Assembly: GCF_004153545.1 (NCBI RefSeq)
Contig: NZ_SDVA01000007.1
Coordinates: 124,001 to 188,000, forward strand
DNA: 64,000 nucleotides
Reading direction: 5' to 3'
Source: Serinicoccus sediminis
Lineage (GTDB): Bacteria > Actinomycetota > Actinomycetes > Actinomycetales > Dermatophilaceae
The position numbers and the translations under genes are program-made. Below are positions 2,984 through 10,290 of the stretch, one piece after another (the first letter of the stretch is position 1; every line of letters begins with the position of its first letter). A model generated the notes under the pieces. That model saw nothing but the letters and a program-made list of their open reading frames with translations, searched no databases and was not told where the DNA came from.

Positions 2984-3038
2984 CGAGAACCTCGACCTCG
3001 ACCCACCGGGTCCCAGCACACGAGGAGGACGGACGTCC

Positions 3039-4604
3039 ATGAGCAGCAGCGCGGCCGACACCCCCGGCGACCCGCGGGTCGCGGACCTGCGCGAGCGCCT
3101 CGACACGGCCTACCGCGCCTCGGCGGAGCCCAGCGAGCGGGCCCGCGCCAAGCTCGACTCCCAGAACAAGCTCTACGTCCGTGAGCGGATCGCCCTGCTC
3201 TTCGACGAGGGGACCTTCGTCGAGGACGGCCGGTATGCGAACGCGACGGCGGGCGCGCTCCCGGCGGACGGCGTCGTGACCGGTCGGGGTGAGGTGGACG
3301 GGCGGGCGGCGATCGTCGTCGCCAACGACCCCACGGTCAAGGCGGGGTCGTGGGGCGCGCGCACCGTGGAGAAGATCATCCGGGCGACCGAGGCGGCCCT
3401 GCGCGAGGAGCTGCCGATCTTCTGGTTCGTCGACTCCGCCGGTGCCCGCATCACCGACCAGGTCGACCTGTTCCCGGGCCGGCGCGGCGCGGGCCGGATC
3501 TTCCACAACCAGGTCGCGCTGTCCGGCAAGGTGCCGCAGATCTGCTGCCTCTTCGGGCCGAGCGCCGCCGGCGGCGCCTACATCCCCAGCTTCACCGACA
3601 TCGTCATCATGGTCGAGGGGAACGCGTCGATGTACCTCGGCAGCCCGCGGATGGCCGAGATGGTGGTGGGGGAGACGGTGTCGCTGGAGGAGATGGGCGG
3701 CGCGCGCATGCACTGCACGGTGTCCGGGGTGGGGGACCTGCTCGCCGCCGACGACACCGAGGCGATCGAGCTCGCCCGGCACTTCTTCTCCTACCTGCCC
3801 GAGTCGTGGCGCGCACCCGTCCCCGCCTACGAGGGCGAGGAGCCCGCGCGGCCGCTGGGGCGGCACACCGTGCCCGAGGCGGAGTCGGTGCCCTTCGACG
3901 TGCACGACGTCATCGAGGGCCTGGTCGACGACGACAGCTTCTTCGAGGTCAAGCCGCTCTTCGCCGCCGAGCTCGTGGTGGGTCTGGGACGTGTGGACGG
4001 GCAGACCGTCGGCATCGTCGCCAACAACTCGGCGGTCAAGGGCGGGGTGCTCTTCACCGACTCGGCCGACAAGGCCGCCCGCTTCATCTGGCTGTGCGAC
4101 GCGTACGGCATCCCGCTGCTCTACCTCGCCGACGTGCCGGGCTTCATGATCGGCTCCGAGGTGGAGCGCGGCGGGATCATCCGGCACGGCGCCAAGATGG
4201 TCTCGGCCGTCTCCGAGGCGACGGTGCCGCAGCTGTGCGTCGTGCTCCGCAAGGCCTACGGGGCCGGGCTCTACGCCATGGGTGGGCCGGGCTTCGGGCC
4301 GGAGGCGACGATCGCGCTGCCCACCGCGCGGATCGCGGTCATGGGCCCGGAGGCGGCGGTGAACGCGGTCTACGCCAACAAGATCGCCGAGATCCAGGAC
4401 GCGCGGGAGCGCCAGGAGTTCATCGACGCCCGCCGCGCCGAGTACCTCGAGGACGTCGACCTCGAGCGGCTCGCCGCTGACCTCGTCATCGACGCGATCA
4501 CCGAGCCCGAGGACCTGCGCGCCGAGGTCGTCCACCGGCTGCGGTACGCCGCCCGCCGGGACCGGCACTTCTCCACCCGCCACCGCAGCATCCCCCCGGT
4601 CTGA
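3039..4604 (+). CDS. Acyl-CoA carboxylase beta subunit (carboxyltransferase)
   Basis: Transfers the carboxyl group from carboxybiotin to an acyl-CoA and partners the alpha subunit at the left edge. The 521 residues show the two crotonase-like halves of the family. The N half has FWFVDSAGARITDQVDLFPG and FGPSAAGGAYIPSFTD; the C half has GILFTDSADKAARFI-like and YLADVPGFMIGSEVERGGII stretches and KAYGAGLYAMGGPGF. The start at 3039 has a good ribosome site (GAGGAGG, 3022-3028). It is probably co-transcribed with the acyl-CoA dehydrogenase, and its stop overlaps the next start by one base (TGATG). The DLFPGRRGAGRIF stretch is reminiscent of methylcrotonyl/geranyl-CoA-type subunits, but substrate choice cannot be settled by eye. 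Confidence 0.92.
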   Translation: MSSSAADTPGDPRVADLRERLDTAYRASAEPSERARAKLDSQNKLYVRERIALLFDEGTFVEDGRYANATAGALPADGVVTGRGEVDGRAAIVVANDPTVKAGSWGARTVEKIIRATEAALREELPIFWFVDSAGARITDQVDLFPGRRGAGRIFHNQVALSGKVPQICCLFGPSAAGGAYIPSFTDIVIMVEGNASMYLGSPRMAEMVVGETVSLEEMGGARMHCTVSGVGDLLAADDTEAIELARHFFSYLPESWRAPVPAYEGEEPARPLGRHTVPEAESVPFDVHDVIEGLVDDDSFFEVKPLFAAELVVGLGRVDGQTVGIVANNSAVKGGVLFTDSADKAARFIWLCDAYGIPLLYLADVPGFMIGSEVERGGIIRHGAKMVSAVSEATVPQLCVVLRKAYGAGLYAMGGPGFGPEATIALPTARIAVMGPEAAVNAVYANKIAEIQDARERQEFIDARRAEYLEDVDLERLAADLVIDAITEPEDLRAEVVHRLRYAARRDRHFSTRHRSIPPV

Positions 4605-4860: not shown

Positions 4861-4895
4861 CATACCTAACAAAGTCGTTAAGTATGCGGTAGGGT
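4861..4895 (+). promoter_or_regulatory. Operator and -10 box of the ArsR-family gene
   Basis: CATACCTAAC (4861-4870) and GTTAAGTATG (4877-4886) form a 10-bp inverted repeat with one mismatch around AAAGTC. It is followed at once by a -10 box TAGGGT (4890-4895), 7 nt before the ATG. An AT-rich palindrome overlapping the promoter is what an autoregulated ArsR repressor needs. Binding is inferred. Confidence 0.72.
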
Positions 4896-4902
4896 GGGCG
4901 CC

Positions 4903-5232
4903 ATGTCCTCCCTCGACGCGGTGGTCGGCGCCATCGCCAGCGAGCCCCGCCGCCGGGTGGTCGAGCACCTGGCCGACGGGCCCGCCACCGTGAGCGCGCT
5001 GGCCGAGGTGCTCGGGATGAGCGTGCCCGGCACGATGCGCCACGTGGACCGCCTGGCGGAGGCGGGGATCGTCCTCCGGACCAAGGCCGGACGCGTCGTC
5101 ACCGTCGAGCTGGTGCCCGGCAGCCTGGACCCCCTGGCGACCTGGGCCCTGCAGCACCGCCTCTTCTGGGGCAACCACCTGGACCGCCTGGCAGGTCACC
5201 TGGCAGGTCCCACCGACAGGAGCGAGCCATGA
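4903..5232 (+). CDS. ArsR-family winged-helix regulator
   Basis: A 109-residue regulator with a winged-helix fold. The recognition region is ALAEVLGMSVPGTMRHVDRLAEAG (about residues 29-52) and the beta-wing is VLRTKAGRVVTVEL. The C-terminal WALQHRLFWGNHLDRL motif is typical of ArsR proteins paired with SRPBCC/AHSA1 partners, and metal-binding cysteines are absent. The ATG at 4903 is preferred to an upstream GTG because TAGGGT sits 7 nt before it (leaderless). The stop overlaps the next gene as ATGA. It most likely represses its own two-gene operon; the inducing ligand is unknown. Confidence 0.9.
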   Translation: MSSLDAVVGAIASEPRRRVVEHLADGPATVSALAEVLGMSVPGTMRHVDRLAEAGIVLRTKAGRVVTVELVPGSLDPLATWALQHRLFWGNHLDRLAGHLAGPTDRSEP

Positions 5233-5657
5233 GCGACAGCACCGTCACCGTCACGCGGGTCGTCCCGGCCGACGCCGACCGGGCCTTCCGGGCGTGGATG
5301 GACCCCGCCGAGCTGGCCCGGTGGTGGTGGCCGCAGTGGCCGGACACGACCTACGAGGTCGACGCCCGCCAGGGCGGGCGGCTGCGCATCACGGCCCCCT
5401 CCGCCGGGGTGGGCGTGGAGGGGGCCTTCCTCGAGCACGATCCCCCGCGCCGGTTCGTCATGACCTGGACCTGGGTGGACGACCCGGCTGCCGGCGTGCC
5501 CGCGGACGCCGCGGTGGACACGGTCGAGGTCACCTTCACCCCGGGCGACGGGGGCACCGAGGTGACCGTGCGGCATACCTCGAGCGGGCACGACGGCGGC
5601 GACGAACAGGGCTGGAACGACGTGCTGGACCGGCTGCCCGGGCACCTGGCGAGCTGA
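5229..5657 (+). CDS. SRPBCC (AHSA1-like) domain protein
   Basis: A 142-residue single-domain START/SRPBCC protein. It begins with the family pattern VTRVVPADADRAFRAWMDPAELARWWWP and continues through the beta-sheet with GGRLRITAP and VEGAFLEHDPPRRFVMTW. It ends with the long C-terminal helix EQGWNDVLDRLPGHL that closes the ligand cavity. It overlaps the ArsR gene by 4 nt (ATGA), a very common pairing in Actinobacteria. Such proteins bind small hydrophobic molecules, and no enzymatic activity can be claimed. Confidence 0.9.
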   Translation: MSDSTVTVTRVVPADADRAFRAWMDPAELARWWWPQWPDTTYEVDARQGGRLRITAPSAGVGVEGAFLEHDPPRRFVMTWTWVDDPAAGVPADAAVDTVEVTFTPGDGGTEVTVRHTSSGHDGGDEQGWNDVLDRLPGHLAS

Positions 5658-5740
5658 CCCTCGGGCACCGAGGCCCGGCTGGGCCCGAGGGCGTGGCCGC
5701 GGGGTCGGGAGCGGTCCGACTCCCGCGGCGTCGACCTTGT

Positions 5741-5746
5741 TAGCCT
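5741..5746 (+). promoter_or_regulatory. -10 box of the deacetylase-sulfotransferase gene
   Basis: TAGCCT lies 6 nt upstream of the ATG at 5753. This is the spacing expected for a leaderless transcript. No convincing -35 box is visible. Confidence 0.55.
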
Positions 5747-5752
5747 CCCGGC

Positions 5753-7294
5753 ATGCTCTCCACCCGTCGACAGGCCCCCGGGGGCACCCCCGGCACGGCA
5801 GGACTGCGCAGGCGTGCCCGCACGGGAGCGCGACGGGTCGCCCAGGCGTTCTCCCGGCCGGTGACCTACGTCGTCGCACCGCACCCGGACGACGAGACCC
5901 TGCGGCTCGCCTCCTACATCCCGTGGCTCTGCGCCCGCACCCAGCACCCGGTCGTCCTGGTCGCCGTCAGCGACGGCGGTGCCTCCCGGCGGGCGGAGCT
6001 CAAGGGGTGGACCCCGGCCTACGAGAGGGAGTTCCGCCGGTCCGAGCAGGCCGCCGCGTGGTCGGCCCTGACGGCGGGCGCGGGGCACATCGTCCGGCTC
6101 GGGCTCCCGGACGGCGGCGTCCAGGCGGAGGAGGTCGGCCGGGCGCTGAAGAAGCTGGACCGCCGCGGGGCGCGGTGGGTCGTCGCGGCCCACCCCGACG
6201 ACGACCACCCGGACCACCGCGCGGTCGTCGAGGCGGTGCAGGGGCTCGGGGCCCGGACCGTGCGGTTCAGCCTGGGCACCCTCATGTCCGGCGAGGCCTC
6301 CGTCTACCGGCCGACCCGCAGCAGCGAGGACCAGATCCAGATCGCCGTGGCCGCCTACGAGAACTTCGGCCGGCAGTCCGTCAAGGACGAGTTCTCGGCC
6401 CTGCGCAGGCTGGGCTACGTGAGCCGCGTCGTCTCCCGGTCGATGGAGCCCGCCGCGGCGGCGCCCCGCCCGCAGCCGCCGGCGGAGCCGGCACGTGCCG
6501 CCGCCTCTGAGCCGGCGCCCGCTGCCACCGCCGAGCCCTCGCCCCCGGCGCCGGCCCCGCCCATCTTCGTCCTGGGCAACCAGAAGTCGGGGAGCACGGC
6601 GATCGCCAGCCTGCTGGCCGAGTGCATCGGCGGGAAGGCCTCGCTGGACGTGCTCTACCAGACCCGCACCCGGCTGGCCGACCTGCTGGGGCAGGAGGAC
6701 GCGGTCGCCACGCTGGCGCAGCGCCGGCCCAAGGTCTTCGCCGCGGACGTGGTGAAGGACAACGACGTCATCTTCCTGCTGCCCTCGCTGCGGGCGGCGT
6801 TCCCGGACGCCCAGGTGGTCTTCGTCGTCCGCGACCCCCGGGACAACATCAGGAGCATCCTCAACCGGGTGGACCTGCCCGGGTCGCAGGCGGACCTCAC
6901 CGCGGACCAGTACGACGACCTGAGGGAGCGGCTGCCCGGGTGGTACCCCATCCTCACCAACGCGGGGATGGCCACCGGGCCCAGGCAGTACGTGGAGGCA
7001 CTGGCGGACCGGTGGGTGCGCGCCGCACAGGCCTACGTCGACGCCGCCGAGCACCTGACGCTGCTGCGCTACGAGGACTTCTGCGCCGACAAGCGCGGGA
7101 GCATCGAGGCGCTGGCCCGGTCCCTGGAGCGACCGGTCGTGCACGACATCACCGGCTCGCAGGACCGGCAGTTCCAGCCCCGCGGAGACCGCGAGGTCAC
7201 CCCCGCGGCGTTCTTCGGCGAGGACAACCTGCGGCGGATCGAGCACACCTGCCGCGCCCTGATGTCCCGCTTCGGCTACCCGACGACCGACTGA
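5753..7294 (+). CDS. PIG-L deacetylase fused to a sulfotransferase
   Basis: A 513-residue two-domain protein. Residues about 36-228 are a PIG-L/LmbE-type zinc N-deacetylase, with APHPDDE (42-48) and AAHPDDDHPDH (145-155) as metal ligands. A Pro/Ala linker covers about 231-270. Residues 271-513 look like a PAPS-dependent sulfotransferase: GNQKSGSTAI (275-284) resembles the 5'-phosphosulfate loop and VVFVVRDPRDNIRSIL the 3'-phosphate site. The order of activities recalls animal heparan N-deacetylase/N-sulfotransferase, though built on a different deacetylase fold. A surface glycan or amino-sugar glycoside substrate is inference. No signal peptide is visible, so it probably acts in the cytosol. 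Confidence 0.85.
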   Translation: MLSTRRQAPGGTPGTAGLRRRARTGARRVAQAFSRPVTYVVAPHPDDETLRLASYIPWLCARTQHPVVLVAVSDGGASRRAELKGWTPAYEREFRRSEQAAAWSALTAGAGHIVRLGLPDGGVQAEEVGRALKKLDRRGARWVVAAHPDDDHPDHRAVVEAVQGLGARTVRFSLGTLMSGEASVYRPTRSSEDQIQIAVAAYENFGRQSVKDEFSALRRLGYVSRVVSRSMEPAAAAPRPQPPAEPARAAASEPAPAATAEPSPPAPAPPIFVLGNQKSGSTAIASLLAECIGGKASLDVLYQTRTRLADLLGQEDAVATLAQRRPKVFAADVVKDNDVIFLLPSLRAAFPDAQVVFVVRDPRDNIRSILNRVDLPGSQADLTADQYDDLRERLPGWYPILTNAGMATGPRQYVEALADRWVRAAQAYVDAAEHLTLLRYEDFCADKRGSIEALARSLERPVVHDITGSQDRQFQPRGDREVTPAAFFGEDNLRRIEHTCRALMSRFGYPTTD

Positions 7295-7321: not shown

Positions 7322-9256
7322 TCAGCGCAGGTGGTCGCCCCACCAGGTGAGGATGTGCTCGAACCGCTGCTGGCGGTGCCGCGGCTGGCCGCTGCGGGTG
7401 AGCTCGTGACCCTCGCCCGGGAAGATGAGCAGCTGGCTGGGGACCCCGTTGCGCCGGAGCCGGGCGAAGAGTCGCTGGCCCTGCTCCAGCGGGCACCGGA
7501 AGTCGCGCTCGGAGTGGATGATGAGGGTGGGCGTGGTGATGTTGTCGGCCCAGGTGAGGGGCGACTGCTCGTGCTGGTAGGCCCCGGCGTACTCGTCGGC
7601 GAAGAACCAGCCGATGTCGCTCGTGCCCGCGAAGGAGTCCCAGGCGTTGACGGCGCGCTCGCTGATGGCCGCGGTGAAGCGGTCGGAGTGCCCGACGAGC
7701 CAGGTGGTCATGAGCCCGCCGTAGGACCCGCCCTGGACCCCCACCCGGGAGCCGTCCAGCTCGGGCAGGGTCAGCGCGTGGTCCAGCAGGGCGGTCAGGT
7801 CGGCGACGTCGACGGTGCCGATGGCCTCCTTGACGGCCCGACCGTGGCCGGCGCCGTAGCCCGACCCGCCGCGCGGGTTGCCCATCACCACGGCATACCC
7901 CGCCCCGGCGAGGACCTGCGCCTCGTCGAAGAGGTTGCCGGAGTACTGCGTGTAGGGCCCGCCGTGGATCATGAGGACGACCGGGTGGCCGGCCTTGCGG
8001 CGCGGCTTGCTCGGGGGGCGGAACAGCCAGCCGTGCACCGGGTAGCCGTCGTTGGCGCTGGCCGACAGCTCCTCCGGCTCGATCGGGTCCGCGGCCTCGC
8101 GCAGGTGACGCCCGAAGTCGGTGCGGGCGGTGAGCGTCTCGCCGAGCCGGCCGACGAACAGCTCGGAGTATGACGTGCGCGTGCCGGCCACCGCCACGAC
8201 CAGGTCGCCCCCGCTCGCCAGCGCGGTGACCGAGACGTGGCCGTCGAGCAGGACGTGCCCCGAGCCCACGTCGCGGACGACGGTGTCGCCGCGCTGCTCG
8301 AACGCGGCCACGACGCTGCCGTCACCGGCGATGACCGGTGCGCAGGCCAGGTGGTCGGTCTCGGCGTCGGTGAGGGCCACGCCGGGGCCGTCGAGCCGCC
8401 GGAGCACGGCGTTGCGGGCGACGAAGTCCTGCTTCGAGCTCCCGAGGTCGTTGGACCCGTAGACGGCGGTGCCGTCCGTGCCCACCGTGACGCTGCCGAC
8501 GCTGCCGGTGCCGTCGGTGTGCCGCCGGAACCCCTTGCCGCGCAGGTCGACCGAGCACACGTCACGGACCAGCGTGTCCGGCACCCAGGCCCCCCTCCGG
8601 TCGCGGGAGGCCAGGAACGCGACCCGGGTGCCGCCGTGGACGAAGCGGGGCTCGGTGTCGTCGCCGGCCCCGCCGGTGAGCTGCACGCTCGCGGGCAGCT
8701 CCTCGGCGTCCGCCGCGTCGGTCGCGGGCAGCTCGGCCAGGTCGAGGAGGAACACCGTGCTGGGGCGGTCCAGGACGTAGCCGAGCCCGTCGGCGAGATA
8801 GGTGCTGTGGCTGATGAGGCGGGGGGCCTCCTGGTCGGGCTTGACGTCGTCGTCGGTGCCGTAGCGCCCTTCCTCCGGGACGCGCGCGGCATACGCCAGA
8901 TGGGTGCTCCCCGGCGACCAGTCGAAGCTGCCCACGCCGAGCTTCTGCTCGGTGAGGACCCGGGCGTCGCCCCCGTCGGCGCGCATGACGTGCAGCTGGG
9001 CGGGGCCGTCCTCACCGGCGCGCAGGAACGCCAGCCACCGACCGTCGGGGGAGTAGCGGGGGGAGGAGTCGCGGGTGCTGCTCGTCAGCCGGACGGGCTC
9101 CGCGCCCTCCTCGGTGAGGTCCAGGCGCCACAGGCTGGAGCGGTAGCGGTTGTCCTCGGTGTCCGGACGGCTGACGCTGAAGACGACGTCGCTGCCGTCC
9201 GGTCGCACGGTGGGGGAGGACAGGGTGCGGATGGCGGTCAGGTCGGTGGGCTTCAC
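7322..9256 (-). CDS. S9-family serine peptidase (prolyl oligopeptidase/acylaminoacyl peptidase type)
   Basis: A 644-residue cytosolic peptidase. The N-terminal two thirds form a beta-propeller with repeated WD40-like blades such as SSPRYSPDGRWLAFL and VGSFDWSPGSTHLAY. The C-terminal alpha/beta-hydrolase domain has HGGPYTQYSGNLFDEAQ, the nucleophile motif GVQGGSYGGLMT, the acid region TPTLIIHSERDFRCP and the catalytic histidine in FPGEGHEL. The start GTG at 9256 has a -10 box TAGGGT 7 nt upstream (leaderless). It is convergent with the deacetylase-sulfotransferase gene, 27 bp apart. It likely trims oligopeptides. Confidence 0.93.
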   Translation of the reverse strand: MKPTDLTAIRTLSSPTVRPDGSDVVFSVSRPDTEDNRYRSSLWRLDLTEEGAEPVRLTSSTRDSSPRYSPDGRWLAFLRAGEDGPAQLHVMRADGGDARVLTEQKLGVGSFDWSPGSTHLAYAARVPEEGRYGTDDDVKPDQEAPRLISHSTYLADGLGYVLDRPSTVFLLDLAELPATDAADAEELPASVQLTGGAGDDTEPRFVHGGTRVAFLASRDRRGAWVPDTLVRDVCSVDLRGKGFRRHTDGTGSVGSVTVGTDGTAVYGSNDLGSSKQDFVARNAVLRRLDGPGVALTDAETDHLACAPVIAGDGSVVAAFEQRGDTVVRDVGSGHVLLDGHVSVTALASGGDLVVAVAGTRTSYSELFVGRLGETLTARTDFGRHLREAADPIEPEELSASANDGYPVHGWLFRPPSKPRRKAGHPVVLMIHGGPYTQYSGNLFDEAQVLAGAGYAVVMGNPRGGSGYGAGHGRAVKEAIGTVDVADLTALLDHALTLPELDGSRVGVQGGSYGGLMTTWLVGHSDRFTAAISERAVNAWDSFAGTSDIGWFFADEYAGAYQHEQSPLTWADNITTPTLIIHSERDFRCPLEQGQRLFARLRRNGVPSQLLIFPGEGHELTRSGQPRHRQQRFEHILTWWGDHLR

Positions 9257-9303: not shown

Positions 9304-10290
9304 TCAGCCACTCGCCGCGGATGAGGGGTCACGGCGCTCGAGGACGACCCAGGCGGTGATCGGGGTGCCCTCGGGGCCGGGCTCGCGCGACACCTCGCGC
9401 CAGACCGAGGGGTCGACGTGCGGGAACCGGGTGCTGCCCTCCGGCGCGAGGTCGACCTCGGTGAGCACCAGCCGGGTGGCGTGGTCGATCGTCTGGGCAT
9501 AGATCTCCCCGCCGCCGACGACGAAGACCTCCGTGTCGCCGGCCACGAGCAGGGCCTCGGGCAGCGAGTGCGCGACCTGCGCGCCCGGGGCCGACCAGCC
9601 CCGGCGACGGGTGACCACGACCGTGCGGCGGCCGGGGAGGGCGCGGCCGATGGAGTCCCAGGTGCCGCGCCCCATGACGAGCACCCCGCCCATCGTCGTC
9701 TCCTTGAAGAAGCGCAGGTCGGCGGGCAGGTGCCACGGCATCGAGGCCCCGTCGCCGATGACCCCGTTGCGTCCGACGGCGGCCACCAGCGTGAGGGACT
9801 GCTCGAACCCGTGGATCACGAGCGCCCCGGTGCGGCCCTCGCGCAGCGCCTCCAGCGCGAGCCGCTCGTGGGGCACCACGTCGTCGGGCAGCCCGTCCAG
9901 CGGCCACCAGCGCAGCTCGGCGGCGCGGTCCGGCTCGGCCACGTGCGGGTCGCCCGACCACGAGGTGGTGGTGACGACCACGTCGACCCGCTGCTCCACC
10001 GGCTCGGGCAGCGCGCAGGTGCGCTGGAGGGTCGCGACGTGGTCGAGGTCGCCGGTCTGGACGACCACCCCCAGCTCCTCGCGCGCCTCGCGCACCCCCG
10101 CCTCCAGGAAGGACTCTCCCGGCTCGACGTGACCCGCGGCGCCGCACGCCCACCACCCGTCCATGAAGGGCGTGCCGCGGCGCAGCTGCAGCAGCACCTC
10201 GGTGCCGTGCTCGCCCTGCCGCTGCAGGACGACGTAGGTCGCGGGCACCAGGCGCCCGTCCGGGGGGCGCTGCACCGGGCCGTGCGTCAT
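9304..10290 (-). CDS. Nudix hydrolase - dihydrofolate reductase fusion
   Basis: A 328-residue protein with two intact enzyme domains. Residues about 14-155 are a Nudix hydrolase with a perfect Nudix box at 53-75 (G-x5-E-x7-REUxEExGU, ending REAREELGV). Residues about 166-328 are a dihydrofolate reductase: [30 protein letters not shown] (184-201), [10 protein letters not shown], and the NADPH site [14 protein letters not shown]. No stop or separate ribosome site lies between them. The ATG overlaps the thyA stop as ATGA, so the two are translated together. DHFR regenerates tetrahydrofolate used by ThyA. The Nudix part may sanitise nucleotides or cleave dihydroneopterin triphosphate; its substrate is unknown. 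Confidence 0.9.

What the first reader, a model, noticed from the sequence alone, without database searches (positions are those of the whole stretch)
5753..7294. One-chain N-deacetylase plus sulfotransferase
A PIG-L zinc deacetylase and what looks like a PAPS sulfotransferase are joined by a Pro/Ala linker. The order and pairing of activities mirror animal heparan N-deacetylase/N-sulfotransferase but use an unrelated deacetylase fold. This suggests a bacterial route to N-sulfated amino sugars or glycosides. Both sets of key residues are present.
Basis: partly seen in the sequence, partly recalled or inferred. Interest (0 to 1): 0.6.

Follow-up and report, generated by a model that had tools for sequence, protein, structure and literature searches.

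The report
Bacterial deacetylase fused to a sulfotransferase
A rare actinobacterial gene makes one protein that looks able to strip an acetyl group from an amino sugar and then add sulfate, a chemistry known as a fused pair in the animal enzyme that starts heparan sulfate sulfation, here rebuilt with an unrelated deacetylase; the activity and the sugar are untested.

Summary
ORF 5753-7294(+) encodes 513 aa: a PIG-L/LmbE zinc deacetylase (Pfam E 7.5e-17, catalytic residues intact), a Pro/Ala linker (68% P+A), and a PAPS sulfotransferase (Sulfotransfer_3, E 1e-12). The C-terminal fold (AlphaFold pLDDT 92) matches tyrosylprotein sulfotransferases (Z 16.8) and the NDST1 sulfotransferase domain (Z 14.5), so it is not another P-loop kinase. 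The fusion occurs in 4 of 31 genomes of its genus. Both domains are under purifying selection; the linker is free. Each half also exists alone in congeners: the sulfotransferase (56% id) follows cysDN in a PAPS-synthesis cluster that also holds a PIG-L gene; the deacetylase (50% id) sits beside two acetyltransferase genes. New here: in four other species the same chromosomal slot carries an acetyltransferase-linker-PIG-L fusion, and the PIG-L/sulfotransferase cassette recently crossed between species (dS 0.05-0.11 against 0.34-0.52 in flanks). Swapping acyl- for sulfo-transferase beside a deacetylase favours 'deacetylate, then re-cap' on one substrate. N- rather than O-sulfation, and the substrate, remain unproven. 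No natural bacterial fusion of this kind turned up in my literature searches. It is a functional analogue of NDST, not an NDST.

The parts
5753..7294 (+). gene for PIG-L deacetylase-linker-sulfotransferase fusion, 513 aa
   Evidence: conserved in G007, G011, G021
5795..5848 (+). residues 15-32: predicted N-terminal helix, net charge +6, no transmembrane segment
   Evidence: secondary structure; charge; maximum 19-residue Kyte-Doolittle mean 1.41
5870..6241 (+). PIG-L/LmbE de-N-acetylase core (residues 40-163); H44, D46, D47, H152, H155
6437..6556 (+). Pro/Ala-rich linker (residues 229-268), fast evolving
   Evidence: composition; dN/dS about 0.74; residues 221-252 under pLDDT 50
6560..7291 (+). 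PAPS-dependent sulfotransferase domain (residues 270-513): P-loop K278, D299 (candidate base), K335, R360/D364/S368, RGDR 477-480
4894..5232 (+). ArsR-like winged-helix regulator; upstream part of the exchanged cassette
   Evidence: Pfam HTH_20; dS 0.06-0.07 to G007/G021
5229..5657 (+). AHSA1/SRPBCC-domain protein; upstream part of the exchanged cassette
   Evidence: (dS 0.09-0.11)
3036..4604 (+). acyl-CoA/acetyl-CoA carboxylase carboxyltransferase: left border of the variable slot
7322..9256 (-). S9 prolyl-oligopeptidase-family peptidase: right border of the variable slot

Best explanation
It is a cytosolic two-step enzyme. The N-terminal PIG-L domain removes the N-acetyl group of an amino sugar (zinc on H44/D47/H155, D46 as general base), and the tethered C-terminal domain then transfers sulfate from PAPS to the same sugar-bearing molecule, most likely to the amine just freed (N-sulfation), so that an acetyl cap is swapped for a sulfo cap. 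Likely substrates are a lipid-linked glycan repeat unit or a soluble amino-sugar glycoside, since PAPS is cytosolic and the protein has no membrane span. Shown: both folds, catalytic motifs, selection on both domains, PAPS supply in the genome. Inferred: activity, one shared substrate, nitrogen as acceptor, identity of the sugar.
For: Domains and motifs; sulfotransferase fold. APS kinase in all 5 genus genomes with this sulfotransferase, against 8 of the other 26 (hypergeometric p 0.0076, relatedness ignored); own genome holds cysDN, APS kinase, a CysQ-like phosphatase and four more sulfotransferases in a Wzx/Wzy polysaccharide cluster. G001: unfused sulfotransferase (56% id) directly after cysD-cysN, and a separate PIG-L gene in the same cluster with APS kinase. 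G185: nearest PIG-L (50% id), unfused, beside a GNAT-like and an Acetyltransf_6 gene. Same slot in G012/G184/G188/G189 carries GNAT plus Acetyltransf_6-linker-PIG-L; another congener has PIG-L fused to a NodS-type methyltransferase. The recurrent partner is a group transferase whose natural acceptor could be the freed amine. Both domains selected, linker not.
Against: No assay and no known substrate. The immediate neighbours are not glycan genes. By fold the sulfotransferase is closest to TPST, an O-sulfotransferase (Z 16.8 against 14.5 for NDST1). PIG-L next to PAPS genes was seen in only one of 13 PAPS clusters examined. The PIG-L of the acetyltransferase fusions is a different lineage from that of the sulfotransferase fusion, so the slot swap is convergent pairing, not a swap of partners on one deacetylase.
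Confidence: 0.45

Rival explanations
1. Same substrate, but O-sulfation: the PIG-L domain frees an amine and the sulfotransferase sulfates a hydroxyl of the same sugar or a neighbouring one, as NodH O-sulfates Nod factor.
For: Closest solved fold is TPST, an O-sulfotransferase; NodH, a bacterial Sulfotransfer_3 enzyme, makes GlcNAc 6-sulfate (PMC11625862). A carboxylate base (here candidate D299) serves O- and N-sulfotransferases alike.
Against: Nothing specific; the partner-swap pattern (acyl-, methyl-, sulfo-transferase beside PIG-L) is slightly better explained by modification of the freed amine.
Confidence: 0.3
2. The two domains are tethered but act on different substrates; the fusion only co-regulates two glycan- or metabolite-tailoring activities.
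For: Long, flexible, fast-evolving linker; no neighbouring pathway genes; ArsR and AHSA1 genes travelled in the same cassette.
Against: Both halves are kept together in 4 species with selection on each; congeners pair PIG-L with other group transferases at the same slot.
Confidence: 0.15
3. The sulfotransferase acts on something other than a sugar (a peptide tyrosine, lipid or natural-product hydroxyl) after the PIG-L domain deacylates it, as in antibiotic tailoring (teicoplanin-type deacylase and StaL/Teg sulfotransferases).
For: Fold hits include TPST, StaL and Teg12/14 and PIG-L hits include teicoplanin pseudoaglycone deacetylases.
Against: No NRPS or PKS or other natural-product genes were found among the genes examined next to the fusion; the slot equivalents and unfused halves sit with acetyltransferase, glycosyltransferase and PAPS genes.
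Confidence: 0.07
4. The C-terminal domain is another P-loop kinase.
For: P-loop at residues 275-282.
Against: Pfam, the 3'-phosphate-binding motif and nearly all top fold hits are PAPS sulfotransferases.
Confidence: 0.01

Closest known systems
[quoted passage not shown]
   Same: One chain, deacetylase before sulfotransferase; sulfotransferase domains share the PAPS fold (Z 14.5, rmsd 3.7 over 210 residues)
   Different: NDST deacetylase is a (beta/alpha)7 barrel with an extra N-terminal domain (PMC10864358); here it is PIG-L/LmbE and there is no such third domain; about 12% identity between sulfotransferase domains; cytosolic, not Golgi
PIG-L/LmbE zinc deacetylases (MshB, BshB, diacetylchitobiose deacetylase)
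   Same: Fold family and zinc/base motif
   Different: Those named act alone; here fused to a sulfotransferase. Substrate unknown
Bacterial Sulfotransfer_3 enzymes (NodH, mycobacterial Stf family, polysaccharide sulfotransferases)
   Same: Pfam family, PAPS motifs, fold
   Different: Fused to a deacetylase; P-loop QK instead of the usual PR; close relatives outside the genus found only in one Thermoleophilia MAG (40% id, unfused)
Acetyltransf_6-PIG-L and PIG-L-NodS fusions of the same genus
   Same: PIG-L joined to a group transferase; the acetyltransferase version lies in the same chromosomal slot and also has a Pro/Ala linker
   Different: Partner is acyl- or methyl-transferase; different PIG-L lineage
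Artificial NDST built for heparin production (PMC13353177)
   Same: Deacetylase and N-sulfotransferase joined by a designed linker
   Different: Engineered by fusing a polysaccharide N-deacetylase with a separate N-sulfotransferase domain; the present gene is natural and uses PIG-L

Membership tests
PIG-L/LmbE de-N-acetylase (PF02585) | Profile match above the curated cut-off | tested here: met
   62.5 bits against 28.2
PIG-L/LmbE de-N-acetylase (PF02585) | Zinc ligands and base: HPDD(E) and HPDH | tested here: met
   H44, D46, D47, H152, H155 nearly invariant in the alignment
PIG-L/LmbE de-N-acetylase (PF02585) | Deacetylase activity on an N-acetyl sugar | not testable with these tools
   needs assay
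PAPS-dependent sulfotransferase (PF13469/PF00685) | Profile match above the curated cut-off | tested here: met
   49.3 against 27 and 23.9 against 22 bits
PAPS-dependent sulfotransferase (PF13469/PF00685) | PSB lysine loop and 3'-phosphate motif RxxxDxxxS | tested here: met
   GNQK278SGST; R360-x3-D364-x3-S368 (motif as given in PMC11625862)
PAPS-dependent sulfotransferase (PF13469/PF00685) | Sulfotransferase fold | tested here: met
   AF2 pLDDT 92; TPST1 Z 16.8, NDST1 Z 14.5
PAPS-dependent sulfotransferase (PF13469/PF00685) | Genome can make PAPS | tested here: met
   cysD, cysN, APS kinase on contig C16
NDST | NDST-type (beta/alpha)7 barrel deacetylase | tested here: not met
   N-terminal domain is PIG-L; no NDST-type deacetylase family in the Pfam scan (barrel from PMC10864358)
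NDST | Deacetylase then sulfotransferase in one chain | tested here: met
NDST | Both steps on GlcNAc, product N-sulfated | not testable with these tools
   needs assay

The most novel reading that the evidence does not exclude
A natural bacterial enzyme that replaces N-acetyl by N-sulfo on a glycan, invented independently of animal NDST from a PIG-L deacetylase, and carried by an exchangeable locus where bacteria swap the cap put on a freed amino sugar (acyl in some species, sulfo in others).
Probability: 0.35. Interest if true: 0.82.

Novelty: new variant of a known kind. Interest (0 to 1): 0.62.

Why it matters
N-sulfated hexosamine polymers have been reported chemically in bacteria (Pontiella, 75-80% N-sulfation) while sulfotransferases acting on glycosaminoglycans were said not to be known in prokaryotes (PMC7356697). 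This gene is a concrete, soluble candidate for such chemistry. Functional NDST expression in bacteria is called a key bottleneck of heparin biosynthesis, which led others to build artificial fusions (PMC13353177). The syntenic exchange of acyl- and sulfo-transferase versions would also make a test case for how bacteria diversify glycan charge.

Tried and rejected
P-loop kinase: rejected by fold and motifs. Phage or plasmid origin: no phage match; one weak plasmid match to the sulfotransferase part only. Chance ORF or annotation artefact: rejected by conservation and dN/dS. Wider distribution of the fusion: none in 247 other genomes of the order, in 147 others of the class (sulfotransferase query), or with a PIG-L among the sulfotransferase hits of 197 others of the phylum; the best other-genus hit was a PIG-L fused to cell-wall-binding repeats. 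Partner swap on one PIG-L lineage: rejected by tree. General PIG-L association with PAPS clusters in the genus: not found beyond G001. Direct sequence search of PDB with the whole protein gave only chance hits. First combined alignment misplaced the sulfotransferase rows, so domains were modelled separately. A full-length model gave a poor overall pTM (0.56) and no trustworthy domain arrangement. Literature searches for a natural PIG-L/sulfotransferase fusion found none. Two searches at family and order level failed for machine reasons. Genus name was not determined.

Full report
WHAT IS THERE. The ORF at 5753-7294 on the + strand is intact and encodes 513 residues. Pfam finds PIG-L at 40-163 and Sulfotransfer_3/Sulfotransfer_1 across about 270-462, all above curated cut-offs. 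Between them lies a 40-residue linker that is 68% Pro plus Ala. There is no transmembrane segment; a predicted N-terminal helix carries net charge +6.

CATALYTIC PARTS. The deacetylase residues H44, D46, D47 and H152-P-D-H155 are nearly invariant (at least 90%) among the aligned PIG-L rows; the roles (zinc on H44, D47, H155; D46 as base) follow from the known PIG-L enzymes such as MshB (own knowledge). A profile built mostly of PIG-L rows hits solved LmbE-type enzymes, best 1uan (E 4e-24), diacetylchitobiose deacetylases, BshB and MshB. The sulfotransferase has the PAPS loop GNQK278SGST, K335, the R360-x3-D364-x3-S368 motif and a C-terminal RGDR. D299 is invariant in the five closest relatives and lies 21 residues after the loop lysine, the spacing I recall for the base Glu of TPST2; I mark it as a candidate base only (inference).

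FOLD. The sulfotransferase domain alone was predicted with pLDDT 92 and pTM 0.90. The 50 best structural matches shown are PAPS sulfotransferases or relatives of that fold: TPST1/2 at Z 16-17 (rmsd 3.1 over about 210 residues), human NDST1 at Z 14.5 (9f6z) and 13.9 (1nst). PMC11625862 notes that N-sulfotransferases, 3-O-sulfotransferases and TPSTs resemble each other in base and PAPS fold, which fits; it also means that fold cannot tell N from O. The full-length model gives confident domain cores, a low-confidence linker and no reliable domain arrangement.

DISTRIBUTION. In the genus (31 genomes) the full fusion occurs in the window's genome, G007 (98%), G011 (74%) and G021 (about 96%, split by one missing C in a run of five Cs, either a sequencing error or a fresh pseudogene). 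Beyond the genus it was not found in 247 other genomes of the order, and close relatives of the sulfotransferase are rare: one unfused 40% relative in a Thermoleophilia MAG, next to glycosyltransferase, another sulfotransferase and ATP-grasp genes as judged from sequence. Both halves are under purifying selection (G000-G011 dN/dS 0.16 and 0.19), the linker nearly free (about 0.74).

THE HALVES ALONE. In G001 the unfused sulfotransferase (56% id) directly follows cysD and cysN, with APS kinase and a separate PIG-L gene in the same few kilobases. This ties the sulfotransferase to PAPS. A PIG-L near such a cluster was seen only there among the 13 PAPS clusters examined, so it is weak evidence by itself. 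In G185 the PIG-L nearest to the fusion's (50% id; joined to it in the tree with 100/99 support) is unfused and sits between inositol-phosphate synthase and a GNAT-like gene, an Acetyltransf_6 gene and a glycosyltransferase. The GNAT-like call there is from sequence resemblance; Pfam gave no match to it.

THE SLOT. The fusion always lies between a carboxyltransferase gene (with or without ArsR/AHSA1 genes) and an S9 peptidase gene. In G012, G184, G188 and G189 the same slot carries a small GNAT gene plus an Acetyltransf_6-Pro/Ala linker-PIG-L fusion; in other congeners it carries neither. The ArsR-AHSA1-fusion segment is far more alike between G000 and G007/G021 (dS 0.05-0.11) than the flanking genes (0.34-0.52), so about 2.4 kb was exchanged between species recently. 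The PIG-L domains of the two slot versions are different lineages: PIG-L was joined to a group transferase at least twice. A third kind of congener joins PIG-L to a NodS-type methyltransferase.

INTERPRETATION. PIG-L enzymes uncover an amine. Acyltransferase, NodS-like methyltransferase and sulfotransferase are all transferases that could act on that amine; NodS is known to N-methylate de-acetylated Nod factor (own knowledge). The simplest reading is that these loci re-cap a freed amino sugar with different groups, and the window's version adds sulfate. APS kinase is present in all five genus genomes with this sulfotransferase against eight of the other 26 (p 0.0076 if genomes were independent, which they are not). 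The host also has a Wzx/Wzy-type polysaccharide cluster with cysDN, APS kinase, a CysQ-like phosphatase and four other sulfotransferases on another contig, so sulfated glycans are likely made. Whether the fusion works on that polymer is unknown.

STATUS OF THE STEPS. Shown by computation: domain identities, motifs, fold, selection, distribution, slot exchange, PAPS supply. Inferred: catalytic activity (about 0.9), one shared substrate (about 0.75), nitrogen as acceptor (about 0.6 given a shared substrate), a sugar substrate (about 0.9). It works like NDST in layout but is not an NDST: the NDST-type deacetylase barrel (PMC10864358) is absent.

Noticed in passing
window 4894-7294; L098, L100: ArsR, AHSA1 and the fusion form a segment of about 2.4 kb exchanged recently between species (dS 0.05-0.11 against 0.34-0.52 in flanks).
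   Followed up: yes
L184:3287-5856, L185:3612-6154, L186:3974-6519, L187:4511-7122: GNAT gene plus Acetyltransf_6-linker-PIG-L fusion occupying the same chromosomal slot as the sulfotransferase fusion.
   Followed up: partly
L104:4089-5489 (G003): PIG-L fused to a NodS-type methyltransferase in the same genus.
   Followed up: no
L191:472-2166 (G422, another family of the order): PIG-L fused to cell-wall-binding repeats (CW_binding_2).
   Followed up: no
window about 9304-10290, - strand; L184:7880-8860: Nudix hydrolase fused to dihydrofolate reductase, directly after thyA (Pfam on the congener's copy).
   Followed up: partly
own genome G000:C16:386000-422000 (L117-L119): Polysaccharide cluster with cysDN, APS kinase, CysQ-like phosphatase, a transporter, Wzx/Wzy/Wzz-type genes and four sulfotransferases: likely sulfated exopolysaccharide in an actinobacterium.
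   Followed up: partly
L124:6353-11490 (G185): PIG-L, GNAT-like, Acetyltransf_6 and glycosyltransferase genes following myo-inositol-1-phosphate synthase.
   Followed up: no
L100 about 9566 (G021): One-base deletion in a C run splits the fusion gene of G021.
   Followed up: partly
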